A DNA stretch of 64,000 nucleotides from Propioniciclava sinopodophylli. GTDB lineage: Bacteria > Actinomycetota > Actinomycetes > Propionibacteriales > Propionibacteriaceae. The stretch's first letter is position 1, and every line of letters starts with the position of its first letter. The notes beneath the pieces are model-generated. The model was not told the origin of the DNA, ran no database searches, and worked only from the letters and a program-made list of their open reading frames with translations. The stretch covers positions 62,001 to 126,000 of the forward strand of contig NZ_SDMQ01000006.1 in the NCBI RefSeq assembly GCF_004324755.1. Reading direction: 5' to 3'. Positions 11,356 through 43,020 of the stretch are shown here, in pieces. Made by a program: the position numbers and the translations under genes.

Positions 11356-11441
11356 GCCCAGGACTCGCCCAACTACCGCCGAGGACTCGTGGTCGTCATG
11401 ACGACCACGAGTCCTCGGCGGTAGTTGGGCGAGTCCTCGGT
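11356..11441. repeat. 86-bp palindrome (22-nt GCCGAG units, family B copy 1)
   Basis: Four 22-nt units, two forward (11356-11377, 11378-11399) and two inverted (11398-11419, 11420-11441), centred at 11398/11399. Bases 11360-11437 form a perfect 78-bp palindrome with no loop; only the outermost unit ends mismatch. It sits between the convergent MFS and DUF4112 genes and can act as a terminator for both. The inner 44 bp recur at 38242-38283. Confidence 0.93.
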
Positions 11442-11450
11442 GATTCTGCG

Positions 11451-11963
11451 TCAGGGGAGGAGCGCGCCGAGGCCGGCGACGATGGCCCAGATCAGCAGGC
11501 CCACCAGCACCAGCGACACCAGCACGAAGCCGACCACCGTGGCGATCGCCATGCCGAGGTAGCCCTTGGCGCTCACGTCGACGTGCTTGCCCTGGGCCAC
11601 GGCCTGTTCCAGCAGGCGGTAGTTCTTGCGGTTCGCCCGGTGCACCACGTCGGCGGCGTCGCCGACGACGGGCACGAAGCCGAGCCCGGTGTCCAGCAGC
11701 AGGTTGAAGCCCATCCGCGCCAGGGTGGGGATCGGGACGCGCTGACGCACGGCGTCCACCATGATGGCGCTGGACAGGCCGGTCCCGATGAGGTCCCCGA
11801 CGCCCGGGATCAGCCCGACCACGGCGTCCGCCCCGATGCCGATGTCCGTGCCGGGGATCTTCACCAGGTCGTCGCTGAAGCGCGCCAGGGCGCGGCTCAT
11901 CGCGATGTCGGGGTAGGCGAGGGGAGCGTGTGGTCGCGGCGAGTCCGAGAGGCGCTTGTTCAC
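11451..11963 (-). CDS. DUF4112-family membrane protein
   Basis: 170 residues. It matches the DUF4112 pattern: an amphipathic glycine-rich region (DAVVGLIPGVGDLIGTGLSS) repeated as NLLLDTGLGFVPVVGDAADV, each half ending in an acidic turn. A single strongly hydrophobic C-terminal segment (IATVVGFVLVSLVLVGLLIWAIVAGLG) should span the membrane. The function of the family is unknown. The gene is alone on its strand between the MFS gene and the siderophore operon; its promoter must lie in 11964-12138. The ATG at 11963 gives a hydrophilic start of about 25 residues before the conserved core. Confidence 0.85.
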   Translation of the reverse strand: MNKRLSDSPRPHAPLAYPDIAMSRALARFSDDLVKIPGTDIGIGADAVVGLIPGVGDLIGTGLSSAIMVDAVRQRVPIPTLARMGFNLLLDTGLGFVPVVGDAADVVHRANRKNYRLLEQAVAQGKHVDVSAKGYLGMAIATVVGFVLVSLVLVGLLIWAIVAGLGALLP

Positions 11964-12078
11964 CCGCCCAGACTAGGCACGACGCCGTCCGCGCACCTCC
12001 GGGCGTCCCCGCACGCGGCCCCGACCGGCGCGCCTCCCACGCCCGCGGCGTCCGGCCCGATGGAATGGGAACCACGGC

Positions 12079-12107
12079 GACCGGGGTACGTATGAGGTAC
12101 CCCGGTC
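12079..12107 (-). terminator. Hairpin downstream of the iron-siderophore operon
   Basis: Perfect 11-bp arms (12079-12089 and 12097-12107; GACCGGGGTAC and its complement) with a 7-nt loop, 32 bp beyond the stop of the leftward ATPase gene. There is no clear U-tract, as is common in high-GC actinobacteria. Confidence 0.7.
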
Positions 12108-12138
12108 GAGGCATGTCCGGGGCCCGGAGGCCGCGGGG

Positions 12139-12896
<758 letters not shown>

Positions 12897-12900
<4 letters not shown>

Positions 12901-13925
12901 CGGCGACGACCTCCAGCCAACAACAGGACGATGAACGTGATGCCGCCGACGAACTCGACGATCATCGACAGGCTACCTTCCAGCCCGAGCACCCTCTCGA
13001 ACGCCCACTGGCCCCCGACGAGGGCGACGGTGCCGGCGAGGATCGAGCCGGGGATCGTCCAGGCGTGCCGCTGGGTGCCGAGCGCCCGGTAGGCGAGGTG
13101 GCTGGACAACAGGCCGAAGAACATCGTGGGCCCGACCAGCGCGGTGGAGGTGCCGACCATGAGCGCCACTCCCACCAGCACGACCATCGTCAGGCGCCGG
13201 TGGTTGATGCCCAGGCAGATCGCGAGGTCGCGGCCGAGGCCGACGACGTCCAGCTGGTGCCGGGCGAGCCATGCGGCGAGCGTGAGGGCGCCGACGACGA
13301 TCGCGCTGACGCCGAGCAGGGCCGGGTCGGCGCCGGTGAAGTCGGCGAAGAAGCGGTCCGACAGCACCTGGAAGTCCTCGGGGCTCATCAGCCGCTGCAG
13401 GAACGACGACACCCCGCGGAACATGCCGCCCACGAGGACGCCCACGAGCAGCATCAGCGTGAGGCTGCGCCCGAAGCGTCCCATCACCAGAGAGAACAGC
13501 AGCAGCGAGAACGCGACCATGGCCAGCAGTTCGAGGGCGAACATCGGCACGGCCGGCAGGGTGGACGCCCCGAACGCGCCGAACACGAACACAGCCGCGG
13601 TCTGCAGCGCGATGTAGAGGGAGTCGAGCCCCATGATCGACGGGGTGAGGATCCGGTTGGCCGTCACCGTGTGGAACAGGACGGTCGACACCCCGACCGC
13701 TGTCGCCACGAGGACGAGCGTGGCCAGCGTGACCGCGCGGCGTCCGAGGATGAAGCCGAGGTTGCCAGACAGGCCGGTGAGCAGGTAGACCGCCACGCTG
13801 GCCGCCGCGAGCGCGACCAGCAGGCCGAGCCGGACGCCCGGGCGCGACCACAGCCCGGCGCGGGCGCGAGAGGAGCCCTCGGACGGCAGGTCGTGCGTGG
13901 GGCGGGCGGTGAGCGTCTCAGCCAC
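12897..13925 (-). CDS. Iron-siderophore ABC transporter permease (FecCD family), second subunit
   Basis: 342 residues with the 9-10 hydrophobic segments of the FecCD/BtuC family. Recognisable stretches are NRILTPSIMGLDSLYIALQT, the DLAICLGINHRRL coupling loop that touches the ATPase, and VGPTMFFGLLSSHLAYRALG. The N-terminal 30 residues are hydrophilic. It starts inside the end of the preceding permease gene (8-bp overlap, 13918-13925) and overlaps the ATPase gene by 4 bp. It should form a heterodimeric channel with the other permease. Confidence 0.93.
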
Positions 13926-14940
13926 GGACGCGCCTCCGGGACAGCAGGATCAGGAACGCCACCGCGCCGACGATGCCGAGCACCGTGGCGATCGGCAGCT
14001 CGAAGGGGTGGATGACCAGGCGCGCCACCAGGTCGCACAGCAGGACGAGGGCCGCGCCGAGCAGGGCCACCCACGGCACCGAGCGGCGGGCGTTGTCGCC
14101 GATGGCGGCGCGGACGACGTTGGGCACGACCAGGCCGAGGAAGGGGAGCGCGCCGACGGTGATCACGACCGTGGCGGAGGTCACGGCGACGACGGTCATG
14201 CCGATGGTCATCGTGCGCCGGTAGTCGAGCCCGAGGTTCGTGGTGAACGCCTCGCCCAGGCCGGCCACGGTGAACCGGTCGGCGACGATTCCGGCGACGA
14301 CGACGAGGGCGCCGGCGATCCAGAGCAGCTCGAAGCGGCCGGCGATGACGGCGGAGAAGTCGCCGGTGGTCCAGGCGTTGAGGCTCTGGATCAGGTCGGT
14401 GCGATAGGCGATGAACGTGGCGAAGGCGCCGATGACGCCGCCGAGCATGAGGCCCACCAGGGGCACGATCAGGACGTCCTTGAGGGGCACGACCTTGAGG
14501 ATGCGGAGGAAGACTGCGGTGCCCATCAGCGCGAAGGTGGTGCCGAGCACCATCTTCACGAGGACGGGGGCGTCAGGCCAGAAGAGCGCGCAGGCGAGCA
14601 GGCCCAGCGTCGCGAAGTCGAGCGTGCCCGCGGTGGACGGCTCGACGAACACGTTGCGGGTCAGCAACTGCATGATCAGGCCCGAGGTCGCCAGGGCGGC
14701 GCCGGCCAGCACGAGCGCCAGCGTGCGCGGGATGCGGCTGACGGCGATGAGCTCGTAGTCGGCGCGGCCCGACAGCACGTCGCCGAGGGAGACGTCCGCC
14801 ACCCCCACGAACAGCGACACGGCCGCGAGCACCGCGAGCGCGGCGACGCCGCCCACGAGCGCAGCGTTGCTGCGCGCGCGGACGGCGGTCCGTGGTGCCG
14901 TGGTGCTCGCGGGGGTGCGGGCGGGGGCGAGGACGCTCAT
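13918..14940 (-). CDS. Iron-siderophore ABC transporter permease (FecCD family), first subunit
   Basis: 340 residues from the ATG at 14940, which shares one base with the stop of the binding-protein gene (TGATG). In-frame sequence further upstream lies inside that gene and is ignored. Family marks are the early arginine-rich SRIPRTLALVLAGAALATSG, TRNVFVEPSTAGTLDFATLG, the ATPase-contacting TNLGLDYRRTMTIGM and GALPFLGLVVPNVVR. About ten membrane helices are expected. It pairs with the 12897-13925 permease. Confidence 0.93.
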   Translation of the reverse strand: MSVLAPARTPASTTAPRTAVRARSNAALVGGVAALAVLAAVSLFVGVADVSLGDVLSGRADYELIAVSRIPRTLALVLAGAALATSGLIMQLLTRNVFVEPSTAGTLDFATLGLLACALFWPDAPVLVKMVLGTTFALMGTAVFLRILKVVPLKDVLIVPLVGLMLGGVIGAFATFIAYRTDLIQSLNAWTTGDFSAVIAGRFELLWIAGALVVVAGIVADRFTVAGLGEAFTTNLGLDYRRTMTIGMTVVAVTSATVVITVGALPFLGLVVPNVVRAAIGDNARRSVPWVALLGAALVLLCDLVARLVIHPFELPIATVLGIVGAVAFLILLSRRRVRG

Positions 14941-15902
14941 CAGCTCAGGGCGTCCTGGACGGCCTTGACCATGCGCTCGGTGGAGTCCAGACCGAAGCCG
15001 ATGGTGTACCAGTCGGAGCCGTCGAGGTAGACGACCTTGTCGTTCGTCCACGCCGGGGTGCGGGCGACGAGCGGGTTGTCGAGCACCTGCTTGGCCGCGG
15101 CGCCCTCCTGGCCGATGGCGGCGTCGCGGTCGATGACGAACAGCACCTCGGGGTTGGTCTCGGCGATGAACTCGAAGCTCACGGCCTGGCCGTGCTGGGA
15201 CGCCTCGAGGTCGGTCGACGCGGCGGGGACGCCGAGCACGTCGTGGATCAGGCCGCCGAAGCGGGCGCCGGGCCCGAACGCGGAGACCTTGCCGCCGGAG
15301 GTGAGCAGGATCAGCGAGCGCGCGTCCGTCTTCACCGCGCCCTTGGCGTCGGCGATGACCTTGTCCAGTTCGGCCAGCTCGGCGTCGGCCTCGGCGCGCA
15401 CGTCGAACAGGTCGCCGAGGGCCTGGGTGCTGGTCTTCAGCGACTCGATCGGCTTGGCGTTGTCGGAGCTCAGGTCGATCGTCGGGGCGACCTGGTTGAG
15501 CTCGGCGTACTTGGCGGCGGAGCGGCCGGAGATGATGATCGCGTCGGGGTCGAGCGCCGCGATGGCCTCGAGGTCGGGCTCCTGGGCGGTGCCGACGGTC
15601 TTGACGGCGGCGTAGGTGTCCAGGGCCTTGGGCATGGCGGCGGACTGGGCAATGCCGACGACGCGGTCCTCGAGGTCGAGCTCGTCCATGGTGTCGAGGG
15701 CGGCCCAGTCGAGCACGACGACCTTCGCCGGGTTCTTCGTGACCTCGGCGGTGCCCTGCTTGTGGGTGATGGAGATCGTGCTGGGAGCGGAGTCGCTCGG
15801 GGCGGCAGTCGAGCCGGCCGGGGTCGCGCTGGACGCGGAGCAGCCGGCGAGGGCCAAAGTCGCGACGACGGCGGGAAGGGCCACGCGGGTGAGGCGGTTC
15901 AT
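14940..15902 (-). CDS. Iron-siderophore binding lipoprotein
   Basis: 320 residues. A lipoprotein signal peptide (MNRLTRVALPAVVATLALAGC) ends in the LAGC lipobox, so the mature protein is anchored outside the membrane. The class III binding-protein fold is indicated by VVVLDWAALDTMDELDL, DPDAIIISGRSAAKYAELNQ and VLFVIDRDAAIGQ near the C-terminus. It captures ferric siderophore and hands it to the permeases encoded directly downstream. The TGGAGA ribosome site precedes the ATG. A DtxR/IdeR-type box lies 25-43 bp upstream, so the operon should be repressed when iron is plentiful. Confidence 0.94.
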   Translation of the reverse strand: MNRLTRVALPAVVATLALAGCSASSATPAGSTAAPSDSAPSTISITHKQGTAEVTKNPAKVVVLDWAALDTMDELDLEDRVVGIAQSAAMPKALDTYAAVKTVGTAQEPDLEAIAALDPDAIIISGRSAAKYAELNQVAPTIDLSSDNAKPIESLKTSTQALGDLFDVRAEADAELAELDKVIADAKGAVKTDARSLILLTSGGKVSAFGPGARFGGLIHDVLGVPAASTDLEASQHGQAVSFEFIAETNPEVLFVIDRDAAIGQEGAAAKQVLDNPLVARTPAWTNDKVVYLDGSDWYTIGFGLDSTERMVKAVQDALS

Positions 15903-15926
15903 GGTTCTCCAGAGGGGATCGGAAGG

Positions 15927-15955
15927 TTAGGGTTGCCTAACTTAGGTACACCTAA
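15927..15955 (-). promoter_or_regulatory. DtxR/IdeR-type iron box
   Basis: Bases 15927-15945 match 15 of 19 positions of the DtxR/IdeR consensus (TTAGG...CCTAA core). An overlapping second inverted repeat, CTTAGGT-N2-ACCTAAG, runs 15941-15956. The pair lies just upstream of the siderophore-binding gene, where bound repressor would block its promoter. Confidence 0.82.
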
Positions 15956-16068
15956 GCACGGCGGAACGCGGCACGACAAGTTGAAGGCCGAATAACGAGA
16001 CGATTCCATTGCGTAATGCGCCGAGCCCCCGAGATGGGAGCTGAGCGACCCTCGGAGCGCCCCCCTGC

Positions 16069-16132
16069 GCCGAGAGCCCCGGTGTCTTACGCCGAGAGCC
16101 CCGGTCCTGTGCGCCGAGAGCCCCTGGGGCGG
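16069..16132. repeat. Three tandem 22-nt GCCGAGAGCCCC units (family C copy 1)
   Basis: Unit starts at 16069, 16091 and 16113 are exactly 22 nt apart. The first 12 bases are conserved (GCCGAGAGCCCC) and the last 10 vary. The array ends 6 bp from the cydC stop. Here the units read opposite to both flanking genes, unlike the other arrays in the window. Confidence 0.85.
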
Positions 16133-16137
16133 TGAAA

Positions 16138-19499: not shown

Positions 19500-19502
19500 A
19501 GA

Positions 19503-20564
19503 CTAGGCGGCGACCGCCACGTCGTCGGGCATGTTGTGAGTGCTGATCCGCTTGCGGAAGATCCACACCGTCCACGCCTGGTAGGCGAGCACGATCGGGA
19601 CGAAGACCACGGCGGCGCCGGTCATGATGGTGAGGGTCAGGTCGGTGGACGCGGCGGTGACGCGGTCGAGCGGCATCGCGGCGGCGGAGTTGTCGAAGCC
19701 CAGGTTCGGCCACATGCGGCCGAAGATCCAGACGGCGACCAGCAGGATCGTCACGGTGGTAGCAACGAACGCCCAGCCGTCACGCCCGGCGCGGATGGCG
19801 AGCCAGGAGCCGATGAGGCCCGCGGCGGCCAGCACAGTGAGCACCCACCCGATCGCGCCCCAGCCGTAGGCGATGTTCGCCCACACCAGGTAGATCGCGC
19901 CGCCGACGATGGCGGCCAGGCCGACCTTGGCCGAGAAGGCCTTGGCGCGGTCGTGCACGACGCCCTTGGTCTTCAGCGCCAGGAAGTTCGCGCCGTGGAA
20001 CAGGAACAGCACCACGAGCACCACGCCGCCCAGCAGGGCGAACGGGCTGAACAGGCTCCAGAAGCCACCGGTGAAGACGTGCAGGTGGTTGCTGCCCTCG
20101 GCGAGGGCCACCGGCATGCCGATGATGAAGTTCGCGAACCCGACACCGAACACGAGCGACACGATGAAGGAGCCGGTGGCCGCCATCCAGTCGAAGGTGT
20201 TGCGCCAGCGGGCGTCCGGGTTCTTGGCCCGGTACTCGAACGACACGCCCCGGATGATGAGGCCGACGAGGATCAGGAACAGCGGCAGGTAGAGGCCGGA
20301 GAACAACGTCGCGTACCAGCCCGGGAAGGCGGCGAAGGTGGCGCCACCGGCGGTGAGCAGCCAGACCTCGTTGCCGTCCCACAGCGGGCCGACGGTGTTC
20401 ACGATGACGCGGCGTTCCTTCTCGGTCTTGCCGAGGAACGGGATGAGCATGCCGACGCCGTAGTCGAATCCCTCGAGGATGAGGTACCCGATCCACAAGA
20501 CGGCGATGAGGATGTACCAGACGACCTGGAGGTTGCTGGCTTCAGCGGCGAGGGGGAGAAGCAT
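19503..20564 (-). CDS. cydB: Cytochrome bd quinol oxidase subunit II
   Basis: 353 residues, eight to nine membrane helices. The family marks near the N-terminus are LEGFDYGVGML and GPLWDGNEVWLLTAGGA, containing the conserved Trp-Asp pair linked to haem d. FALLGGVVLVVLFLFHGANFLALKTKG lies mid-protein. With CydA it forms the high-affinity menaquinol oxidase that reduces oxygen to water without pumping protons, useful at low oxygen. It lies 16 bp downstream of cydA. Confidence 0.96.
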   Translation of the reverse strand: MLLPLAAEASNLQVVWYILIAVLWIGYLILEGFDYGVGMLIPFLGKTEKERRVIVNTVGPLWDGNEVWLLTAGGATFAAFPGWYATLFSGLYLPLFLILVGLIIRGVSFEYRAKNPDARWRNTFDWMAATGSFIVSLVFGVGFANFIIGMPVALAEGSNHLHVFTGGFWSLFSPFALLGGVVLVVLFLFHGANFLALKTKGVVHDRAKAFSAKVGLAAIVGGAIYLVWANIAYGWGAIGWVLTVLAAAGLIGSWLAIRAGRDGWAFVATTVTILLVAVWIFGRMWPNLGFDNSAAAMPLDRVTAASTDLTLTIMTGAAVVFVPIVLAYQAWTVWIFRKRISTHNMPDDVAVAA

Positions 20565-22101: not shown

Positions 22102-22112
22102 GGCGGGAATGT

Positions 22113-25622: not shown

Positions 25623-25629
25623 GGCCCCT

Positions 25630-25838
25630 CCGCCGCGGCGAAGCGGGAGGCACGACCAGAGCCCCGGGTTTCGACGCCGAGAGCCCCGGGTTTCGACGCC
25701 GAGAGCCCCGGGTTTCGACGCCCACAGCCCCGGGTTTCGACGCCCACAGCCCCGGTCAGGGGCCGTCGGCATTCAACGCCGGGGCTGTCGGCAGTCAAAG
25801 CCGGGGCTGTGGTCGTGCCTCCCGCTTCGCCGCGGCGG
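25630..25838. repeat. Large inverted repeat enclosing tandem 22-nt units (family C copy 2)
   Basis: Perfect 29-bp arms at 25630-25658 and 25810-25838 (38 bp with one mismatch if the adjoining 9 bases are included). Between them, starting at 25659, lie about four and a half 22-nt units of the GCCGAGAGCCCCGGG type, followed by partial inverted units near 25774-25809. It separates the convergent GH3 gene and the small membrane-protein gene, so it could terminate both. Confidence 0.9.
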
Positions 25839-25841
25839 GGT

Positions 25842-30074: not shown

Positions 30075-31109
30075 ATGAGCCAACCCGGAGTGGTCGCGAT
30101 CGTCGCCAACCCGTCCAAGTTCTCCGATCTGGACGAGGTGAAGGGCAGCACCGCGGTGGTGGCGGCCGAGGCTGGTTGGCCGGAGCCGCGGTGGTACGAG
30201 ACGACCGTGGAGGACCCCGGTCGCGGGCAGGCGGTGCAGGCCGTCCGCGACGGTGCCACCCTGGTGTGCTCGCTGGGCGGCGACGGCACCGTCCGGTCCG
30301 TGGTGCAAGGCCTGCTCGAGGTGCGCCCGCCGGACGACGAGGCCGAGGTGCCGCTGGGCCTGCTGCCCGCCGGCACGGGCAACCTGCTCGCCCGCAACCT
30401 GGGGCTGCCGATCGACGACCTGGCCGAGTCCCTCCGCATCGCGCTGACCGGCACGACCCGGCGCATCGACGTCGGGCGGGCCTCTTTCGACGACGGCGAC
30501 GTGGAGGTTTTCCTCGTCGCGGCCGGGGTGGGGTTGGACGCCGAGACCATGGCGAACGTGGATGAGGACGTGAAGAAGAAGGTCGGCTGGATCGCCTACG
30601 TGCTCGCGGCCGGCAAGTCGCTGCTGCGCAAGGGGTTCCGCGTCAGCGTGGTCGCCGACGGCCACCGCGCACGCAGCCAGCACGCCCGCACGGTCATGGT
30701 CGGCAACTGCGGCGAGCTCACCGCCGGCGCCAAGCTCATGCCGGACGCCCGCGTCGACGACGGCCTCCTGGACGCCCTCGTGGTCTCCCCGAAGGGGTTC
30801 CTCGGGTGGGGTTCGGTGCTGCTCGACTTCGCCACGCGCCACCGGCTGGGCCACCCGTCGGTGAAGCGCGTGCAGGCCCAGAAGGTGGAGGTGCTGCTCG
30901 GGAGCCCGGAGGAGGGCGAGCTCGACGGGGACGCCGTGGGCCAGGTCCGCGCGATGCTGTGCGAGGTGCACGCGGGCGCCCTGCCCGTCCGCGTGCCGGC
31001 CGCCCCGGGAGGGCTGGACCTGAGCCACGCTTCCCGCCGAGGGCTCGTGCTGCCGTGTCGCCTTCCTGCTAGACCGCGCCCGTCGACACGCGCGACCATG
31101 AACGGGTGA
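30075..31109 (+). CDS. Diacylglycerol/lipid kinase family protein
   Basis: 344 residues. The catalytic-domain marks are VAIVANPSK at the N-terminus, the CSLGGDGTVRSVVQGLLE glycine loop and LGLLPAGTGNLLARNLGL, the diagnostic phosphate-binding pair of DagK/YegS kinases. The C-terminal half has FLVAAGVGLDAETMA and the ARVDDGLLDALVV stretch. It should phosphorylate diacylglycerol or a related lipid at the membrane surface. The last 25 residues are basic and poorly conserved, partly encoded by a lone GCCGAGGGCTCG repeat-like word near 31037. Its stop shares a base with the next ATG (TGATG), so it is coupled to the repair genes. Confidence 0.9.
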   Translation: MSQPGVVAIVANPSKFSDLDEVKGSTAVVAAEAGWPEPRWYETTVEDPGRGQAVQAVRDGATLVCSLGGDGTVRSVVQGLLEVRPPDDEAEVPLGLLPAGTGNLLARNLGLPIDDLAESLRIALTGTTRRIDVGRASFDDGDVEVFLVAAGVGLDAETMANVDEDVKKKVGWIAYVLAAGKSLLRKGFRVSVVADGHRARSQHARTVMVGNCGELTAGAKLMPDARVDDGLLDALVVSPKGFLGWGSVLLDFATRHRLGHPSVKRVQAQKVEVLLGSPEEGELDGDAVGQVRAMLCEVHAGALPVRVPAAPGGLDLSHASRRGLVLPCRLPARPRPSTRATMNG

Positions 31110-32581: not shown

Positions 32582-33060
32582 AGCATCGCACCATCGACTC
32601 GCCCGTCGGCACGTTGACCCTGGTCGTCGACGACGCGGGCACCCTCTGTGCGCTCTACACCGACGGGCAGAAGTACTTCCCGCTGCCCGAGGCGCTGGGG
32701 GAGCGCGACGACACCGTCGCCGCGGACGCCGTCGCCCAGCTCGCCGAGTACTTCGCCGGCGAGCGCGCCGACTTCGACGTGGAACTGGCCCCGCGCGGCA
32801 CCGCGTTCCAGCAGGAGGTGTGGGACGCCCTGCGCGCGATCCCGGCGGGGGAGACCCGCAGCTACGGCGAGGTGGCGGCCGCGCTCGGCCGGCCCGGGGC
32901 GTCCCGGGCGGTGGGGGCGGCGACGGGCCGCAACCCGATCAGCATCATCGTGCCCTGCCACCGGATGGTCGGCGCCTCGGGGGCGATGACCGGCTACGCG
33001 GGCGGCGTCGACCGTAAGCGGTGGCTGCTCGACCACGAACGCGGCGTGCGACAACTCTGA
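32578..33060 (+). CDS. ogt: Methylated-DNA-protein cysteine methyltransferase
   Basis: 160 residues from a GTG at 32578 that overlaps the Ada-AlkA stop (GTGA). The active-site motif [10 protein letters not shown] (Cys127) and the preceding helix-turn-helix region ([23 protein letters not shown]) define the family. The protein transfers the alkyl group from O6-alkylguanine to its own cysteine and is inactivated in the process. Coupling to Ada-AlkA makes this an adaptive alkylation-repair operon. The end of the gene, including its stop, forms part of the outer stem of the hairpin at 33047-33110. Confidence 0.96.
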
Positions 33061-33110
33061 GTGACGGATCGCACGCCAGGGCGTGCGATCCGTCACTCAG
33101 ATGTGTCGCA
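33047..33110. repeat. Hairpin repeat, family A relative (copy 2)
   Basis: Perfect 22-bp arms at 33056-33077 and 33080-33101 around a 2-nt loop, extended to 31-bp arms with two mismatches (33047-33110). It overlaps the ogt stop and ends 4 bp before the lacI-type stop, so it probably terminates both convergent transcripts. The TGACGG...GCACGCC order parallels the copy at 2271-2322. Confidence 0.85.
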
Positions 33111-33113
33111 CGG

Positions 33114-34195: not shown

Positions 34196-34396
34196 GAGGG
34201 TTCAGATTGGTCACCTCGACAAGTAATTTTGTCAGGGCATCGTCCCTGCCTCAACAGTGGCGCAGGGGCCCGCAGCAATCACGCCAGGTGATGAAATCGT
34301 TACGAAAAAGGCCCCTGAAACTTGCAGGCGGATGGGGTACGGTTGGGCCAACCCACGGGGCCGGCACGGGAGCCGTCCTCATTGAAGGAGAAACCA

Positions 34397-35635
34397 ATGC
34401 GCAAGAGCATCGTCACGATGCTGGCCGCAGGCGTGGCCCTCAGCCTCGCCGCCTGTGGCAGCACGGGTGCCCCGGCCACCACGCCGGCCACCGCCTCGAC
34501 CGCGGCCGCTGCGACGACCCCTGCGGCCGCCGCCGGCAACCTGACCATCTGGGTCGACGAGACCCGCATCGACGACTTCAAGGCGCTGGGCGAGGACTTC
34601 GTCTCGGCCTCCGGCGTCGCCCTCGACGTCGTGCAGAAGCCGACCGCCGACATCAAGACCGACTTCGTGGCCCAGGCCCCGACCGGTGAGGGCCCCGACC
34701 TGATCGTCGGCGCGCACGACTGGACCGGTGAGCTCGTCTCCAACGGCCTGATCTCCCCGATCGAGCTCGGCGACAAGGGCAAGCTGGCCGACAACACCGT
34801 CGCCGCCTTCCAGTACGACGGCGCCCTGTACGGCGTCCCCTACGCGGTCGAGAACATCGCGCTGGTCCGCAACAACAAGATCGTCCAGGACACCCCGGAC
34901 ACGTTCGACGCCCTGATCGAGCAGGGCAAGGGCGCCGGCGCCGAGTTCCCGGCCATCATCCAGGTCGGCGACGGGGGTGACGCGTACCACATGTACCCGA
35001 TCCAGACCTCCTTCGGCGCCCCGGTCTTCAAGTCCAACGCCGACGGCTCCTACACCAACGAGCTGGGCATGGAGGGTGCTGAGGGCGAGGCCTTCGCGAC
35101 CTACCTGAAGAAGCTGGCCGACGAGAAGGTCGCGTCCGTCTCCATGGGTGGCGACCAGGCCAAGCAGGCCTTCCTCGACGGCAAGAGCCCGTACATGATC
35201 ACGGGTCCGTGGAACACCGCCGCCTTCACCGAGGCCGGCATGGACATCTCCGTCCTGGCGGTTCCCTCCGCCGGTGGCCAGCCCTCCGCCCCGTTCTTGG
35301 GTGTCCAGGGTGTCTACCTCTCCTCCAAGTCCGAGAACGGCATCCTCGCCAACCAGTTCCTCGACTACATGGCCACCACCGAGGCCCAGCAGAAGCTGTT
35401 CGACCTGGGCGGTCGCGTCCCGGCCGACACCTCGGTCGCCGAGGGCATCACCGACGAGCTGCTCGCCGGTTTCGCCGAGGCCGGCAAGAACGGCCAGCCC
35501 ATGCCCTCCATCCCCGAGATGGGCGCCGTGTGGAGCCACTGGGGCAACACTGAGGTGAGCATCATCAACGGTCAGGCCGCCGACCCGGTCGCCGCCTGGA
35601 AGACCATGGTCGAGAACATCAAGGCCGGCTTCTGA
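34397..35635 (+). CDS. malE: Maltose/maltodextrin-binding lipoprotein
   Basis: 412 residues from the ATG at 34397, after a GAAGGAG ribosome site. The signal peptide ends at the lipobox SLAAC, followed by an Ala/Thr-rich tether. The family 1 solute-binding fold shows LTIWVDETRIDDFKALGEDF, EGPDLIVGAHDWTGELVSNG, YGVPYAVENIALVRNN and SPYMITGPWNTAAF, all close to actinobacterial MalE. It binds maltose or maltodextrins and feeds MalFG. Its codon choice is strongly biased, as for an abundant protein. No MalK-type ATPase is in the cluster, so a shared one (MsiK-like) encoded elsewhere is probable. Confidence 0.95.
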   Translation: MRKSIVTMLAAGVALSLAACGSTGAPATTPATASTAAAATTPAAAAGNLTIWVDETRIDDFKALGEDFVSASGVALDVVQKPTADIKTDFVAQAPTGEGPDLIVGAHDWTGELVSNGLISPIELGDKGKLADNTVAAFQYDGALYGVPYAVENIALVRNNKIVQDTPDTFDALIEQGKGAGAEFPAIIQVGDGGDAYHMYPIQTSFGAPVFKSNADGSYTNELGMEGAEGEAFATYLKKLADEKVASVSMGGDQAKQAFLDGKSPYMITGPWNTAAFTEAGMDISVLAVPSAGGQPSAPFLGVQGVYLSSKSENGILANQFLDYMATTEAQQKLFDLGGRVPADTSVAEGITDELLAGFAEAGKNGQPMPSIPEMGAVWSHWGNTEVSIINGQAADPVAAWKTMVENIKAGF

Positions 35636-35652
35636 GCCACTTGTGACAAGAT

Positions 35653-35680
35653 GGGCGGGGTGAGGTTTCTCGCCCCGCCC
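35653..35680 (+). terminator. Hairpin between malE and malF, probable attenuator
   Basis: 12-bp arms (35653-35664, 35669-35680) with one G-U pair and a GTTT loop, followed by ACTTTGCTT. It lies 18 bp after the malE stop and 48 bp before malF. Partial termination here, or 3'-end protection, would keep MalE in excess over the permeases, as in other binding-protein operons. Confidence 0.7.
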
Positions 35681-35728
35681 ACTTTGCTTGCCAGGCCGCA
35701 CTGACGCGACCGGAAGGGAAGGAACGAC

Positions 35729-37317
<1,589 letters not shown>

Positions 37318-37318
<1 letters not shown>

Positions 37319-38202
37319 TGGCCGTCAAGCTCGAGAACGCCAACAAGTCCCCCGTCAGCGGCCTGCGCTGGTGGAAGGAGGTCGGCTGGAAGCACATCGT
37401 CGCCCTCGTCATGATCGCGATCTGTGTGTTCCCGCTGCTGTACGTGATGTCGGCCTCGTTCAACCCGGGCGGCACCCTGACCGGCTCGATCCGCCTGTTC
37501 GAGAAGGTCTCGCTCGAGAACTATCAGACCCTGCTGGGGTCGCTGTTCCCGCGCTGGATGCTGCACTCGTTCATCGTCGCCACGGCCACCGCGGTCGGGA
37601 CGGTGCTGATGGCGGCCGCCGCGGCCTACGCCTTCAGCCGGTTCCGGTTCAAGGGACGCCGCGGGTCGCTGACCGCGCTGCTCATCATCCAGATGTTCCC
37701 GCAGATGCTGGCCTTCGTCGCCATCTTCCTGCTGCTGCTCACCATCGGCGACATCTTCCCGGTGCTCGGCATCGGGTCGCTGCTGGGCCTCATCGCCGTC
37801 TACCTGGGCGGCGCGCTGGGTGCGAACACGTTCCTCATGTACGGGTTCTTCAACACGATCCCGGACGACCTGGACGAGGCCGCCAAGATCGACGGCGCCA
37901 CCCACGCCCAGATCTTCTGGGGGATGATCATGCCGCTCGTCACGCCGATCCTGTCGGTCGTCGGGCTGCTGTCCTTCGTCGGCACCTACGGTGAGTTCAT
38001 CCTGGCCCGGATCATCCTGGCCCGGCCCGAGAACTACACCCTGGCCGTCGGCCTGTACGTGTGGGCCTCCGACGAGCGCAACGCCCCGTGGTCGCTGTTC
38101 GCGGCGGGCGCGGTGGTCGCGGCCATCCCGATCATCCTGCTGTTCATGTACCTGCAGAAGTACATCGTCGCCGGCCTCACCGCCGGTGGCGTGAAGGGCT
38201 GA
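37318..38202 (+). CDS. malG: Maltose ABC transporter permease MalG
   Basis: 294 residues from the ATG at 37318, overlapping the malF stop by one base (TGATG). Six membrane helices, the EAA loop DDLDEAAKIDGATHAQIFWG near residue 182 and the C-terminal extension VAGLTAGGVKG, which is typical of MalG and reaches into the ATPase dimer interface. It pairs with MalF for maltose/maltodextrin import. Last gene of the operon; its stop region runs into the 38220-38305 palindrome. Confidence 0.95.
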
Positions 38203-38219
38203 GCGCCACCGCCGAACCC

Positions 38220-38305
38220 GCCGAGGACTCATCCAACTACCGCCGAGGACTCGTGGTCGTCATGACGACCACGAGTCCTCGGCGGTAGTTAGGTGAGTCC
38301 TCGGC
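38220..38305. repeat. 86-bp palindrome (family B copy 2)
   Basis: Same design as 11356-11441: two forward 22-nt units (38220-38241, 38242-38263) and two inverted ones, centred at 38262/38263. The inner units are identical to copy 1; the outer units pair with each other except at two positions. It lies between convergent malG and zwf. Confidence 0.93.
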
Positions 38306-38307
38306 GC

Positions 38308-39684
38308 TCAGTTCCAGGAGGTGGGGCCGTACGAGCCCGCGGTGTACTCGTCCAGCGGCACCTCGCCGGACGACCACGCCTCGAACACCGGCGTGAGGAT
38401 GCGCCAGCACTCCTCGGCCACGTCGCCCCGCACCGAGAGCAGCGGGTCCCCGGACAGGATGCCGTCGAGGATCTCGCCGTAGGGGCGGATCGGCGACTCC
38501 GACAGCTCGGTCGACAGGGTGGTCTGCTCGAGGTCCCAGCGGTCGCCCTCGGCGTTGGTGGTGATCGAGAGCGCGATGCTCTCCGGCGAGATGCCGATCA
38601 CCATCACGTTGGGGGGAGCCTCGTTGTGGAACCCGCCCGGCAGGTGCGCCACCGGCTTGAACTTGACCACGATGCCGCGGAACCCGTCACCCAGCGCCTT
38701 GCCCGACCGCAGCCGGAAGGGGACACCGGCCCAGCGGGCGTTGCAGATCTCCACGGTGAGCTGGGCCAGCGTCTCGGTCTGGCGCGCGGGGTCGACACCC
38801 GGCTCGGCGGTGTAGTCGGGCACCTCACGTCCGTCGATCGTGCCGGCCGCGTACCGCGCGCGCCGCGACGGAACCTCGCCCTCGCCCGACCACAGCTTGG
38901 TCGCGCGCAGCGTGTGCATCATGAGGTCGCGCAGCTCGACGGCGTCGATGTTGGCCGGCTCCTCCATGGCGAAGATCGCCATCACCAGCAGCAGGTGCGA
39001 CTGGATCATGTCCTTCAGTGCGCCCGCCTTGTCGTAGTACCCGGCGCGGCCCTCGAGGGCGAGCCCCTCGTCGGCGATGATCTCGACGCGCTCGATGTTG
39101 TTGGCGTTCCACACCGGCTCGAAGATGCGGTTGCCGAAGCGGATGCCCAGCAGGTTCACTACGGTCGCCTTGCCGAGGTAGTGGTCGACGCGGAAGATCC
39201 GCTCCTCGGGCACCACGGACGTGAGCAGCTGGTTGAACGCCCTGGCCGACTCCAGGCTCGACCCGAACGGCTTCTCGATCGCCACGCGCAGCCCCACTGG
39301 CAGCTCGAGCGTCGACAGCACCTCGCACGCCTTCTGGCTGATCGCCGGCGGCAGCGCGAAATACAGGACGATGGGGCGTCCGGCCTCGTCGATGTCGGCC
39401 AGGAACGCCTTCATCGCCGCGCCGTCCGTCACGTCGAGCTGGGCGTAGCGGGTCTCGGACGCCATCCGCTCGGCCCGCTCCACCCGGCAACCGCCGTCTG
39501 CGAGCGCCTCGCTGACGCGCTTGCGCCACTCCGCCTCGTCGAGCGCCTCAAAGGCTGCGCCGACCAGCTTCACGTCGAGGTCGGGGCGGGTCCGCAGCAG
39601 CGTGCCCAGCCCGGGCAGGAGCAGGCGGCGGGTGAGGTCACCCGAGGCACCGAGGATGACGAGGGTCACGGGCCCGTTGGGCAT
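38308..39684 (-). CDS. zwf: Glucose-6-phosphate 1-dehydrogenase
   Basis: 458 residues from the ATG at 39684 (GGAAGGA ribosome site). The NADP motif is GASGDLTRRLLLPGLG near residue 11; the substrate motif is RVDHYLGKATVVN and the preceding IEKPFGSSLESARAFN contains the conserved lysine-proline pair. It oxidises glucose-6-phosphate to 6-phosphogluconolactone, feeding the pentose phosphate path and NADPH supply. No opcA, pgl or tal gene lies next to it, so this may be a stand-alone copy. It ends 3 bp from the family B palindrome, which probably terminates it. Confidence 0.95.
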   Translation of the reverse strand: MPNGPVTLVILGASGDLTRRLLLPGLGTLLRTRPDLDVKLVGAAFEALDEAEWRKRVSEALADGGCRVERAERMASETRYAQLDVTDGAAMKAFLADIDEAGRPIVLYFALPPAISQKACEVLSTLELPVGLRVAIEKPFGSSLESARAFNQLLTSVVPEERIFRVDHYLGKATVVNLLGIRFGNRIFEPVWNANNIERVEIIADEGLALEGRAGYYDKAGALKDMIQSHLLLVMAIFAMEEPANIDAVELRDLMMHTLRATKLWSGEGEVPSRRARYAAGTIDGREVPDYTAEPGVDPARQTETLAQLTVEICNARWAGVPFRLRSGKALGDGFRGIVVKFKPVAHLPGGFHNEAPPNVMVIGISPESIALSITTNAEGDRWDLEQTTLSTELSESPIRPYGEILDGILSGDPLLSVRGDVAEECWRILTPVFEAWSSGEVPLDEYTAGSYGPTSWN

Positions 39685-39724
39685 GGGCGTTCCTTCCACG
39701 AGGGTGCTCCAACCCTAGACGGCC

Positions 39725-40570
39725 TCAGGAACGCCAGGGGGTCAACGTCTCCACGACCGTGTCGGCCCACAGCACCGAGCCGGCCTCGTTGGGGTGCAGT
39801 CCGTCGGGCTTGAGGAGCGGCCCGGCGCCGCCGGAGGCGTCGGTGAAGGCGTGGTAGACGTCGATGATGGGGTACTTCTCCTCGATGGCCCACTCGGCGA
39901 TGAGGCGGGTCACCTCGTCGGCGGCGGGGAGCCGCTCGGGGGTGGTCACCTGGTTCTGCATCGTGATCACGATCGGGACGTCCGGGGTGGCCTGATCGCG
40001 CACGAGGCCCAGGAGCGTCTGCAGCTGGGGGAGTGCCTGGGTCGGGTCGGAATTGTTGTTGTGTCCGAGCGAGATGACCACCACGTCGGGGGCCTCGGGC
40101 AGGCAGTCGTCGACGTGGTCGTAGAAGTTCGACGGCTTCCAGCCGCTGACCGAGCAGTTCCACACGGTGCGGTGCGGGCCGTCACCGCTCAGGACGCGCT
40201 CCTCGTACCGGCCCGAGCTCGTGATCCATCGGTTGAGGGTCACGGCGTGGTCGCTGCTCATCTCGGTGGCCCACAGGGCGGGCCACTCCGTCATCTCGTC
40301 GCCGGTCGAGTCGCCGAAGACCGCGATGTCGAGCTCGGTGGGGGAATTCAGCAGCGTCTGTACCGCGAACAACGTCGGGACGCTCGCGGGGGCGGGTGCG
40401 CCGGACGCGGTGCCGGCCGGCGTGGGTGCGGCGGGGGTTGCGGCGTGTGCGGCCGGGGAAGATGGGGGCGCCGGGACGGACGTGCCGGTCGACGGTGTCG
40501 TCAGGGCGCACCCCGCCAGCAGGGCGGCCGTGCCTGCCAGGGACGCGAGCTTCGGGGCGGAGCACTTCAC
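39725..40570 (-). CDS. SGNH/GDSL-hydrolase lipoprotein
   Basis: 281 residues from a GTG at 40570. A lipoprotein signal (APKLASLAGTAALLAGC) is followed by a Pro/Ala/Thr-rich tether of about 45 residues. The SGNH blocks are visible: IAVFGDSTGDEMTEW (block I serine), SLGHNNNSDPTQ (block III) and DGLHPNEAG (block V Asp and His). Such proteins deacylate lipids, glycans or acylated polymers outside the membrane; the substrate here is unknown. Starting upstream at 40630 would overlap lysS, so 40570 is preferred, although its ribosome site is weak. Divergent from lysS. Confidence 0.87.
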   Translation of the reverse strand: MKCSAPKLASLAGTAALLAGCALTTPSTGTSVPAPPSSPAAHAATPAAPTPAGTASGAPAPASVPTLFAVQTLLNSPTELDIAVFGDSTGDEMTEWPALWATEMSSDHAVTLNRWITSSGRYEERVLSGDGPHRTVWNCSVSGWKPSNFYDHVDDCLPEAPDVVVISLGHNNNSDPTQALPQLQTLLGLVRDQATPDVPIVITMQNQVTTPERLPAADEVTRLIAEWAIEEKYPIIDVYHAFTDASGGAGPLLKPDGLHPNEAGSVLWADTVVETLTPWRS

Positions 40571-40619
40571 GAGCCAAGCATCCCACTTCGTCCGCGGCGG
40601 TTCTCGGTAGGGTGGCGGG

Positions 40620-42146
40620 GTGAACGACAAGCATCAGCGCGCGGCGTCCGCCGCCCCCCAGCCGTCCGTCTCCGAGCAGGTCCAGGTGCGCCTGGCCAAG
40701 CGCGAGCGGCTGCTGGCCGAGGGCCGCCAGCCGTACCCCGTCGAGGTGCCGCGCACGCACGCGCTCGCCGCGGTGCGCGCCGAGTGGGGCCACCTCGCGC
40801 CGGGCGAGGAGACCGACGTCGTGGTGAGCGTAGCCGGGCGGATCATGTTCCAGCGCAACACCGGCAAACTGTGCTTCGCGACGCTGGCCGACCAGTTCAC
40901 CCAGGACGCCGATGGCGACCGCCTGCAGGTCATGCTCTCGCTGGCCGAGGTTGGCCAGGACTCGCTGGACGCCTGGAAGGCCGACACCGACCTGGGGGAC
41001 TTCGTGTCGGTGACGGGCCGCGTGATCGCGTCCAAGCGCGGCGAGCTGTCGATCATGGCGACCGACTGGGTGCTGGCGTCCAAGGCGCTCCGCCCGCTGC
41101 CGACGCTGCACAACGAGCTGTCGGAGGAGACCCGCGTCCGCCAGCGCTACGCAGACCTGGTCGTGCGCGACGACGCCCGCGCCATGGTGCGGACGCGGGC
41201 GGCGATCACCCGCAGCGTCCGCGAAACGCTGCACCGGCTGGGCTACATCGAGGTCGAGACGCCCACGCTGCAGCTGATCCACGGCGGCGCCGCCGCGCGC
41301 CCGTTCACGACGCACCTCAACGCGTTCGACATCGACATGACCCTGCGCATCGCGCTCGAGCTCTACCTCAAGCGCGCCATGGTCGGTGGCACCGAGAAGG
41401 TGTACGAGATGGGCCGGATCTTCCGCAACGAGGGCATCGACAGCTCGCACTCGGCCGAGTTCACGATGCTGGAGTGCTACGAGGCCTGGATCGACCAGAA
41501 GGGCATCGCCGCGGTCATCCAGCAGGTGATCGTGGACGCCGCGGACGCCGTCGGCTCGCGCCAGGTCGAGACGGAGGCCGGGGTCATCGACCTGGACGGC
41601 GAGTGGCTCTGGCTGCCGTTCTACACCGGGTTGTCGGAGGCGTTCGGCCGCGAGATCACGCCCGACACCACCCGCGCCGAGCTGGAGGAGCTCGCCGAGC
41701 AGCACGGGGTCGAGTTCGACCCCAAGCTCTCCGACGGCAAGCTCGCGATGGAGCTGTTCGGGGAGGTCGTCGAGCCCACGCTGATCCAGCCCACGTTCGT
41801 GTGCGACTACCCGGCCATCGCCCAGCCGCTGGCCCGTCCGCACCGCGACGACCCGCGTCTGGTCGAGGCCTGGGACCTCATCATCGGCGGCATGGAGCGC
41901 GGCACCGGCTTCTCGGAGCTGATCGACCCGGTCATCCAGCGCGAGCGTTTCACCGAGCAGTCGCTGCTGGCCGCCAAGGGCGACCCCGAGGCCATGCAGC
42001 TCGACGAGGACTTCCTCAACGCCCTCGAGTTCGGCGCCCCGCCGATGGGCGGCCTGGGCCTGGGCATCGACCGCCTGATCATGCTCTTCACCAACAAGGG
42101 CATCCGCGAGACGATCCTCTTCCCGCTGCTCAAGCCCCAGGGCTGA
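40620..42146 (+). CDS. lysS: Lysyl-tRNA synthetase (class II)
   Basis: 508 residues from a GTG at 40620. The N-terminal OB-fold anticodon-binding domain (VVVSVAGRIMFQRNTGKLCF) precedes the class II core: motif 2 GRIFRNEGIDSSHSAEFTML and motif 3 GLGLGIDRLIMLF. The lysine site variant IHGGAAARPFTTHLNAFD is standard. It charges tRNA-Lys. The gene is alone on its strand and ends 10 bp before a five-unit 22-nt repeat array that separates it from pabA. Confidence 0.97.
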   Translation: MNDKHQRAASAAPQPSVSEQVQVRLAKRERLLAEGRQPYPVEVPRTHALAAVRAEWGHLAPGEETDVVVSVAGRIMFQRNTGKLCFATLADQFTQDADGDRLQVMLSLAEVGQDSLDAWKADTDLGDFVSVTGRVIASKRGELSIMATDWVLASKALRPLPTLHNELSEETRVRQRYADLVVRDDARAMVRTRAAITRSVRETLHRLGYIEVETPTLQLIHGGAAARPFTTHLNAFDIDMTLRIALELYLKRAMVGGTEKVYEMGRIFRNEGIDSSHSAEFTMLECYEAWIDQKGIAAVIQQVIVDAADAVGSRQVETEAGVIDLDGEWLWLPFYTGLSEAFGREITPDTTRAELEELAEQHGVEFDPKLSDGKLAMELFGEVVEPTLIQPTFVCDYPAIAQPLARPHRDDPRLVEAWDLIIGGMERGTGFSELIDPVIQRERFTEQSLLAAKGDPEAMQLDEDFLNALEFGAPPMGGLGLGIDRLIMLFTNKGIRETILFPLLKPQG

Positions 42147-42156
42147 CAGCCCCCCC

Positions 42157-42266
42157 GTCGAGGGCTTGGGTTCGATCCGCCGAGGGCTTGGGTTCGATCC
42201 GCCGAGGGCTTCGGTTCCGGACGCCGAGGGCTTGTGTTCCGGACGCCGAGGGCTTGGGTTCAGCGC
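42157..42266 (+). repeat. Five tandem 22-nt GCCGAGGGCTT units (family D array 1)
   Basis: Units start at 42157, 42179, 42201, 42223 and 42245. The first 11-12 bases are nearly constant; the tail changes in blocks of neighbouring units (GATCC in the first two, CGGAC in the next two). It lies between convergent lysS and pabA; the last unit contains the pabA stop. Array 2 at 42911-43020 is its inverted counterpart. Confidence 0.92.
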
Positions 42267-42892
42267 GCGGACATCAGCGGCGCGAGGCCGGCCGCACGGG
42301 CCGGGGCGTCCGTGTCGCCGCAGGCCGCCAGCCAGTTGGCGAGCATCTGGTAGCCCCCCTCGGTGAGCACCGACTCGGGGTGGAACTGCACGCTCTCGAC
42401 CGGTAGCGTCCGGTGCCGGACGGCCATGATGACGCCGGAATCGGTGCGGGCGCTGACCTCCAGCTCGTCCGGCACCGTCTCGGGGTCGATGGCGAGCGAG
42501 TGATAGCGCGTCGCCGTGAACGGGTTGGGCAGGCCGGCGAACACGCCGCGTCCATCGTGGTGCACGAGCGACGTCTTGCCGTGCAGCAGTTCGGGTGCCC
42601 GCCCGACGACGCCGCCGTACGCGACGCCGATCGATTGCAGGCCCAGGCAGACGCCGAAGATGGGGATCTGTTCGCCCTTGGTGCGCACCACGTCGATACA
42701 CACGCCGGCGGCCTCGGGCGTCCCGGGACCGGGGGAGAGCAGGACGCCGTCGAACCCGTCAGTCCAGGACTCGTCGTCGAAGCGGGGGTCATCGTTGCGC
42801 CACACCTCCACCTCGGCGCCGATCTGCGCGAGGTAGCTGACGATGTTCCACACGAACGAGTCGTAGTTGTCCACGACGAGGATCCGAGCCAT
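42260..42892 (-). CDS. pabA: Anthranilate/aminodeoxychorismate synthase glutamine amidotransferase
   Basis: 210 residues from the ATG at 42892. The type 1 amidotransferase marks are VVDNYDSFVWN at the start, the oxyanion strand LLSPGPGTPEAAG, the nucleophile in FGVCLGLQ (Cys about 79) and the His-Glu pair in VQFHPESVLTEGG. It supplies ammonia from glutamine to chorismate-using synthases for folate and/or tryptophan. No trpE or pabB is nearby; its position next to the division and kinase cluster matches mycobacterial Rv0013. The gene is flanked on both sides by inverted arrays of 22-nt repeats. Confidence 0.93.
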   Translation of the reverse strand: MARILVVDNYDSFVWNIVSYLAQIGAEVEVWRNDDPRFDDESWTDGFDGVLLSPGPGTPEAAGVCIDVVRTKGEQIPIFGVCLGLQSIGVAYGGVVGRAPELLHGKTSLVHHDGRGVFAGLPNPFTATRYHSLAIDPETVPDELEVSARTDSGVIMAVRHRTLPVESVQFHPESVLTEGGYQMLANWLAACGDTDAPARAAGLAPLMSAR

Positions 42893-42910
42893 GGGGACAT
42901 TCTCGCCGAT

Positions 42911-43020
42911 GCCGCGAACCCAAGCCCTCGGCGTCCCGAACCCAAGCCCTCGGCGTCCCGAACCCAAGCCCTCGGCGTCCCGAACCCAAGCCCTCGACGG
43001 ATCGAACCCAAGCCCTCGGC
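42911..43020 (-). repeat. Five tandem 22-nt GCCGAGGGCTT units (family D array 2, inverted)
   Basis: On the minus strand five 22-nt units run from 43020 down to 42911; the inner ones end GGGAC. It starts 3 bp after the stop of the DUF881 gene and ends 18 bp before the pabA start, so it may terminate the division cluster. Together with array 1 it makes a 110-bp inverted repeat around pabA. Confidence 0.92.

What the first reader, a model, noticed from the sequence alone, without database searches (positions are those of the whole stretch)
11356..43020. Modular 22-nt repeat family at gene ends, conserved GCCGAG core with locus-specific tails
Units of exactly 22 nt beginning GCCGAG(A/G)(G/A)C occur at 11356-11441, 16069-16132, 25659-25809, 38220-38305, 42157-42266 and 42911-43020, with single units near 31037 and 57857. 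Within a locus the tails are nearly identical; between loci they differ, as if arrays expand and homogenise locally. Almost all lie between convergent genes or just after a stop. I know of no named element with this design.
Basis: seen in the sequence. Interest (0 to 1): 0.72.

Follow-up and report, generated by a model that had tools for sequence, protein, structure and literature searches.

The report
Nuclease-linked repeats scattered between genes
The 22-letter repeats in this bacterial genome fall into three families, and each family also brackets its own copy of a nuclease-like gene, which points to a protein and repeat partnership that recurs in related bacteria and that we did not find described.

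Summary
The repeats are real, but gene ends are not the key. The window lies in a Propioniciclava-type genome with 218 tandem pairs of the unit against 0 in a reversed control. Units form hairpins (>n<m) or direct arrays. Direct arrays less than 1.5 kb apart point inward in 8 of 9 cases, and those 8 pairs share one core subfamily. Each of the three subfamilies (a, g, d) also brackets one member of a protein family, AbiEi-like with a conserved D...ExDGxxK motif. Relatives elsewhere are bracketed by inverted repeats with other motifs: 58 of 83 tested loci score 46 or more, against 1 of 107 control genes. Three tested motifs are dispersed in genomes holding the cognate gene and rare or absent elsewhere. 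The anatomy resembles a REPtron, but Y1 transposase was found in 0 of 13 genus genomes. Binding, cutting and dispersal are inferred. Against: P. flava has arrays but no family hit, 25 of 83 loci lack a clear bracket, and brackets around ordinary genes (trpG here) are unexplained.

The parts
11356..11441 (.). subfamily d hairpin element (>><<), core GCCGAGGACTC, between an MFS gene (+) and a DUF4112 gene (-)
16069..16134 (+). subfamily a direct array (>>> with partial last core GCCGAGAGCCCC), beside the stop of an ABC transporter gene
25652..25816 (.). subfamily a element (>>>>><<), inside an outer inverted module CGGCGAAGCGGGAGGCACG
38219..38306 (.). subfamily d hairpin element (>><<), 44-nt arms, between an ABC permease gene and a G6PD gene
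42157..42266 (+). subfamily g direct array, 5 units, left arm of an inward bracket; its last unit overlaps the end of the trpG-like gene
42260..42892 (-). bracketed native gene, glutamine amidotransferase (trpG/pabA-like); same synteny without arrays in G007 and G012
42911..43020 (-). subfamily g direct array, 5 units, right arm of the inward bracket
57841..57886 (+). subfamily a remnant array of about 2 units, upstream of tRNA-Leu(cag)

Best explanation
The repeats are dispersed copies of cognate sites of a family of about 300-residue proteins, with an AbiEi-like front part (a winged helix in known AbiEi) and a PD-(D/E)XK-like nuclease motif behind it. Shown: of the six family members of this genome whose surroundings I read (8 matches in all), three are bracketed, one each, by the three core subfamilies found in the arrays. 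Relatives elsewhere are bracketed by different motifs, and the three motifs tested genome by genome are dispersed where the cognate gene is. In three of four ortholog groups examined the gene keeps its chromosomal neighbours, and in three ortholog pairs it evolves under purifying selection, so it is mainly the repeats, not the genes, that spread. Inferred: the front domain binds the 22-nt unit, much as AbiEi proteins bind 23-bp inverted repeats in their own promoters. Inferred more weakly: the nuclease part cuts at or near the sites, and break repair copies the motif into new intergenic places and lengthens arrays by slippage. The system would thus work like a REPtron with an unrelated enzyme. 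Hairpin copies between convergent genes may incidentally act as two-way terminators.
For: - One subfamily per member: a brackets G000:C22:79197, g brackets G000:C7:59055, d brackets G000:C11:388244 (arrays at 388196 and 390004, a second gene also inside; score 58 only with 1,100-nt flanks).
- Two further G000 members carry other motifs: C33 (score 100) and C8 (score 71, but 20 with the gene-start rule).
- Bracket test (600 nt upstream aligned to the reverse complement of 600 nt downstream): genus 17 of 28 loci score 46 or more (one search gives 18, one of them, C11, with 1,000-nt flanks; at 600 nt it scores 25), other genera of the family 20 of 27 (without two loci already in the genus set), rest of the class 21 of 28. 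Controls: 1 of 107 genes in G006, G009 and G015.
- Motif specificity: 0 of 70 cross-pairs within a genome reach 46. Of 756 cross-pairs 13 do; 10 of these join proteins that are 50-77% identical.
- Dispersal: GTCTCAAACTCC 25 times in G005 (4 at its own gene) and 0 in 12 others; CAGTTGCCCNCGTT 26 in G006, 3 in G007, 0 in 11 others; CTGCTCGATCTTG 47 in G067 and at most 3 in each of 56 others.
- Polarity: 8 of 9 close array pairs inward, 8 of 8 with matching subfamily; hairpin arms match in 24 of 26.
- Protein: ExDGxxK in 27 of 28; PADLOC AbiEi models hit 10 of 11, best 1.1e-21.
- Place and selection: collinear flanks in three of four ortholog groups; dN/dS 0.14-0.24 in 3 ortholog pairs.
- Published AbiEi proteins bind 23-bp inverted repeats (passages of PMC7319586).
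Against: - P. flava (G011) has 14 tandem matches but no family member was found.
- 25 of 83 loci have no clear bracket at 600 nt, among them G000 C42.
- With the array-rich genomes G000 and G001 included, 11 of 494 control genes reach 46, as expected if arrays also bracket ordinary genes.
- No cognate of the a' subfamily of G001 was seen among the three G001 loci tested (the other three G001 matches were not tested or carry a stop); in G008 a' units lie beside the C33 gene, of which only one side is on the contig.
- Brackets also surround ordinary native genes (trpG, serB-like and others), and one of the 8 close inward pairs encloses no called gene; the model does not predict this.
- The ortholog pair G006:489k / G007:C129 shares no flanking sequence.
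- Pfam support for the nuclease part is weak (MTES_1575 E 0.017, DUF559 E 0.084, one of 11 each). The PDB profile search found nothing convincing (best E 1.4). No fold could be predicted.
- No cutting, binding or movement has been seen.
- Only loci that the searches returned (mostly the best-scoring matches) were tested; they are not phylogenetically independent, the class set had no same-genome gene controls, and two high scores (L282, L297) look partly low-complexity or coding.
Confidence: 0.68

Rival explanations
1. Regulator reading: the protein is an AbiEi-like autoregulator. The inverted repeats beside its gene are operators, and the dispersed arrays are further operators or decoys of a regulon. 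The nuclease-like motif has another role or none, and the repeats spread by ordinary duplication.
For: AbiEi proteins bind 23-bp inverted repeats in their own promoters (passages); AbiEi models match 10 of 11 members; one arm of each bracket lies upstream of the gene by construction of the test.
Against: Repeats also stand after the gene's stop, and genome-wide beside stop codons rather than next to starts (28 of 34 in co-directional gaps). There are 73 elements in 857 kb. The ExDGxxK residues are kept in 27 of 28, which a pure regulator would not need.
Confidence: 0.2
2. Terminators or insulators: the elements are host-made bidirectional terminators and boundary marks at transcript ends, expanded by replication slippage.
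For: Hairpin elements fold strongly (mean z -6.8 and -7.0 on the two strands, n=20). 20 of 68 elements lie between convergent genes, and 36 of 54 outside divergent gaps lie within 10 nt of a stop.
Against: Direct arrays fold no better than shuffles (mean z -0.34 and 0.35, n=20). 13 elements lie in divergent gaps. Array orientation relative to the gene is mixed (by eye). It does not explain motif-to-gene matching.
Confidence: 0.15
3. Plain VNTRs: slippage-made tandem repeats with no dedicated protein; the association with the family is a by-product.
For: Tails are homogenised inside arrays and not shared between arms (6.35 of 10 against 6.48 in the null). Array presence turns over between G000 and G001: of 108 conserved gene adjacencies, both 6, only G000 10, only G001 3.
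Against: Inward polarity, same-subfamily arms, and the bracket excess of 58 of 83 against 1 of 107.
Confidence: 0.05
4. MITE or transposon ends: remains of a classical DDE transposon with several 22-bp transposase sites at each end (Tn7 or Mu style, recalled).
For: Inward arrays of 22-bp sites with sharp outer tips and usually one gene inside.
Against: Bracketed genes are native and syntenic (trpG; three of four groups of family genes). No target duplication was seen by eye. The gene inside the family brackets gives no transposase hit.
Confidence: 0.05

Closest known systems
REP/BIME/REPIN repeats and the REPtron (TnpA_REP, RAYT)
   Same: Short repeats stand beside one gene that is not itself mobile, are dispersed in the same genome, form hairpins, and differ between genomes (passages of PMC8266576; PMC3733652).
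   Different: Y1 transposase in 0 of 13 genus genomes; no GTAG or CGTC tag seen, the core begins GCCGAG; tandem direct 22-nt arrays; the protein is AbiEi/nuclease-like.
AbiEi antitoxins of AbiE type IV toxin-antitoxin systems
   Same: Profile hits; known AbiEi proteins bind 23-bp inverted repeats beside their own gene (passages of PMC7319586).
   Different: No neighbour at the eight loci printed looks like an AbiEii toxin (by eye, from N-termini); an added ExDGxxK part; repeats on both sides of the gene and genome-wide.
DUF559 / MTES_1575 / Vsr-like PD-(D/E)XK nucleases
   Same: Nearly invariant E, D, G and K spaced as ExDGxxK with an upstream D; weak Pfam hits.
   Different: Family hits are weak (one of 11 members each); fold and activity untested; link to repeats not in the papers listed.
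Neisseria dRS3 and other CGTC-type repeats
   Same: Short dispersed repeats; CGTC repeats are said to lack a dedicated transposase (passages of PMC3733652).
   Different: Other sequence, other phyla; here a bracketed protein family is found.

Membership tests
REP/REPtron | Y1 (HUH) transposase TnpA_REP encoded in the genome | tested here: not met
   PF01797 in 0 of 13 genus genomes; 5 of 14 control genomes ring
REP/REPtron | GTAG (or CGTC) tag at the foot of the palindrome | tested here: not met
   Units begin GCCGAG in the 94 seed units, which were chosen by that core; no tag seen by eye in the printed elements
REP/REPtron | Cognate repeats beside the gene and dispersed in its genome | tested here: met
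   in the sense of anatomy only
REP/REPtron | The gene itself is not mobile | tested here: inconclusive
   Collinear flanks in the g clade, the C33/2471k pair and the C28/C212 pair, not in the 489k/C129 pair
AbiEi antitoxin | AbiEi-type sequence | tested here: met
   PADLOC AbiEi models in 10 of 11 members; Pfam AbiEi_4 in 2 of 11
AbiEi antitoxin | AbiEii toxin gene next door | tested here: inconclusive
   Neighbours at the eight loci look like enolase, MazG, GalE and others by eye (labels recalled); no systematic search
PD-(D/E)XK nuclease | Catalytic-type residues | tested here: met
   ExDGxxK in 27 of 28; D206, E217 and D219 in 28 of 29, K223 in 27 of 29
PD-(D/E)XK nuclease | Fold and cleavage | not testable with these tools
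MITE/transposon | Target site duplication at the outer ends | tested here: inconclusive
   None seen by eye at the printed element ends; no systematic test
Intrinsic terminator | Stable hairpin in each element | tested here: inconclusive
   Met by hairpin elements as a group (n=20), not by direct arrays (n=20)
Rfam families | Match at gathering score | tested here: not met
   0 matches in the window

The most novel reading that the evidence does not exclude
A second, independent class of repeat-dispersing systems exists in Actinomycetes: AbiEi-nuclease proteins, each with its own fast-changing recognition repeat, seed genomes with tens to hundreds of intergenic copies. Paralogues in one cell run separate, non-cross-reacting repeat families, and many unexplained hairpin or tandem repeats of this class would be their cognate sites.
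Probability: 0.5. Interest if true: 0.9.

Novelty: categorically new. Interest (0 to 1): 0.8.

Why it matters
REP sequences and TnpA_REP have been a model for how bacterial genomes acquire interspersed palindromes. If AbiEi-nuclease genes do the same job with another enzyme, one cause would account for many unrelated-looking repeat families in Actinomycetes; family members were found in 98 of 118 class genomes. It would also give a role to a common gene family that annotation pipelines name only after an orphan antitoxin domain (that name is recalled), and provide dozens of natural pairs of protein and recognition repeat for studying how DNA-binding specificity changes.

Tried and rejected
Transcript-end marker: dropped as the main reading because direct arrays do not fold, orientation relative to genes is mixed (by eye), and elements also occur in divergent gaps.

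Mobile gene cassettes: the inward brackets first looked like cassettes, but trpG sits in the same synteny without arrays in G007 and G012.

Recombination handles: three blocks of 96-99.6% identity between the window and G001 end at array-bearing stops. In two more segments only about one of six further blocks does (by eye), so this was not pursued.

Arms co-evolving as one stem: tails are not shared between arms beyond subfamily (6.35 against 6.48 of 10).

REP/RAYT: no Y1 transposase. Plasmid search: the listed matches cover the trpG gene, not the arrays.

Method errors mended on the way: the first gene caller put genes on the wrong strand and was replaced. Loci of minus-strand hits from the genome search are not turned round, so the flank tests were partly wrong and were redone, which printed its results but ended with a file-writing error.

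Rows left out of the flank counts: L242, L251 and L267 (contig ends), L254 (in-frame stop), L277 and L310 (short flanks), L269 and L270 in the family set (already in the genus set). The genus test covers 27 of the 35 matches plus one match; the family and class tests cover the loci returned (30 and 29), not the full match lists. Two family loci (L285, L297) and one class locus (L328) have one in-frame stop by the search tables and were kept.
Full report
What is there. The window is part of a 3.07 Mb draft genome (G000). The reported units are real. GCCGAGRRC occurs 37 times in the window against 9.6 expected. The 22-nt tandem pattern occurs 218 times in the genome and never when read backwards. 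Of 39 genomes searched with a stricter pattern, G000 included, 6 match, all of one genus: G000 215, G001 34, G008 34, G011 14, G007 2 and G006 1; 7 other genomes of the genus have none.

Anatomy. I read 857,426 bases of G000 in ten contiguous segments. The first set was chosen partly around arrays, the second was contiguous, so densities are not unbiased. A profile of the units gave 207 hits at score 14 or more against 4 in a Markov control in the first 464 kb. The 857 kb hold 73 elements with 327 units: 44 direct arrays, 26 hairpins and 3 mixed, 5 of them inside predicted genes. A unit is a fixed core of about 12 nt plus a tail of about 10 nt. There are three core subfamilies: a (GCCGASAGCCCC, 38 elements), g (GCCGAGGGCTTG, 26) and d (GCCGAGGACTC, 9). 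Hairpin elements fold strongly and direct arrays do not.

Polarity. Of 9 neighbouring direct-array pairs closer than 1.5 kb, 8 point inward, 1 is same-direction and none point outward. From 1.5 to 5 kb the counts are 1 inward, 3 same and 2 outward; above 5 kb 2, 4 and 5. All 8 close inward pairs have one subfamily on both sides; 7 of them enclose one called gene, one encloses none. Hairpin arms share the subfamily in 24 of 26. Close pairs in G001 (3 of 3) and G011 (4 of 4) also point inward by the coordinates; one G011 arm overlaps a gene call. Tails are not shared between arms beyond subfamily.

Turnover. At lysS-trpG-DUF881 (window 42146-43024), G001 and G008 carry arrays at the same two places in the same orientations, but with other cores at some of them; G007 and G012 have no arrays on either side. 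Over 108 gene adjacencies shared with G001 in three segments, 6 carry elements in both, 10 only in G000 and 3 only in G001.

The cognate proteins. Two G000 brackets and one G001 bracket hold related genes of about 300 codons; the two G000 proteins had no Pfam hit below E 0.02. A search of the genus found 35 matches in 10 of 13 genomes, 5 of them in G000; a profile search gave 8 in G000. Three G000 members are bracketed by the three subfamilies, one each: C22 by a, C7 by g, C11 by d (with a second gene inside). Two more have other motifs (C33, C8) and one has none (C42). Orthologues of C7 in G001 and G008 lie in g brackets; the one in G007 has g units on the one side that the contig covers. Relatives 37-42% identical in other species have repeats of 18-21 nt or simple palindromes with unrelated sequence beside the gene, mostly on both sides.

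Bracket test. I aligned 600 nt upstream with the reverse complement of 600 nt downstream. Among 107 control genes of 600-1300 nt in G006, G009 and G015 the best score is 53, and 1 reaches 46; with G000 and G001 added it is 11 of 494. In the genus 17 of 28 testable family loci reach 46; one search prints 18 because C11 was given 1,000-nt flanks there. In other genera of the family 22 of 29 do, or 20 of 27 without the two loci already counted. In the rest of the class 21 of 28 do. Together that is 58 of 83. Several loci come from related genomes and are not independent. Swapping flanks between class loci gave 20 of 756 at 46 or more, with maxima that point to homologous loci; I did not inspect these one by one. 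In the genus, 13 of 756 swaps reach 46: 10 join proteins 50-77% identical, 3 involve C42, probably through a shared neighbouring gene (not checked). None of 70 swaps within a genome does. So the motif belongs to the gene and drifts with it.

Dispersal. The motif beside G005:C64:44011 occurs 25 times in G005, 4 of them at that gene, and nowhere in 12 other genomes; the reversed control occurs once. The motif of G006:489274 and G007:C129 occurs 26 and 3 times there and nowhere in 11 others; the reversed control occurs 4 times in all. The motif of G067:4610353 occurs 47 times in G067, 6 times as + and - pairs with starts 49 nt apart, and 1 to 3 times in 26 of 56 other genomes; the reversed control occurs twice in all. 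In G000 the C33 motif occurs 6 times and the C8 motif twice in 857 kb that do not contain those genes; the reversed motifs do not occur.

What the protein is. ExDGxxK is present in 27 of 28, with an upstream D in 28 of 29 (25 of 28 by a stricter spacing rule). AbiEi models of PADLOC match 10 of 11 members. Pfam gives AbiEi_4 for 2 of 11 (best 4.4e-5) and a restriction-endonuclease-like (E 0.017) and a DUF559 (E 0.084) hit for one each. Published AbiEi proteins bind 23-bp inverted repeats in their own promoters, two in Streptococcus agalactiae and four in a mycobacterium (passages of PMC7319586); that is close to the 22-nt unit. The genes keep their chromosomal neighbours in three of four ortholog groups; the pair G006:489k / G007:C129 does not (neighbour names judged by eye). 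dN/dS is 0.14-0.24 in three ortholog pairs, with high synonymous divergence.

Reading. The window's arrays are best read as dispersed cognate repeats of three AbiEi-nuclease proteins encoded elsewhere in the same genome. The outline is that of a REPtron: a gene beside repeats that are spread through the genome (passages of PMC8266576). The defining Y1 transposase was found in 0 of 13 genus genomes, and the GTAG/CGTC tags were not seen. It works like a REPtron in anatomy but is not one. That the protein binds the unit is likely; that it spreads the repeats by cutting is a hypothesis.

Results against. P. flava has arrays but no detectable family member. 25 of 83 loci, including G000 C42, show no clear bracket at 600 nt. 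Many brackets enclose ordinary genes. Not all direct arrays have a partner nearby. The nuclease assignment rests on a motif and weak hits. The tested loci were those returned by the searches. Ten paper searches found no report of this link, but the library lacks most subscription journals; of the papers named here I read passages only (PMC8266576, PMC3733652, PMC7319586).

Noticed in passing
window 2264-2384, 33045-33112, about 53659: A second, unrelated palindrome family (CTGNNTGACGG..GCACGC, arms of 32-33 nt), three elements, all in the window part of the 857 kb read; its arms were not found beside three other G000 family genes (C33, C8, C42).
   Followed up: partly
window 9864-11336, about 34400-38202, about 40635-42146: Blocks 96-99.6% identical to G001 in an 84% background, each ending at a stop codon next to an array; in other segments most such blocks do not.
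   Followed up: partly
window about 25628-25655 and 25812-25840: An outer module CGGCGAAGCGGGAGGCACG flanks a and g elements; 5 occurrences at 4 elements in 464 kb of G000 and one in G001.
   Followed up: no
G006:C1 near 2101469 and 2104380 (L117): 20-nt tandem arrays (CGAGCCGCCCGCGTTCGCGA type) in large gaps, similar to those that bracket the family gene at G006:C1:489274.
   Followed up: partly
window 42911-43020: The right g array ends 18 nt upstream of the trpG start codon, so the promoter must lie in those 18 nt, in the array or beyond it.
   Followed up: no
G001:C1:2661433-2662337 (L151): An inward bracket encloses a response regulator gene and separates it from the following gene in the same direction.
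   Followed up: no
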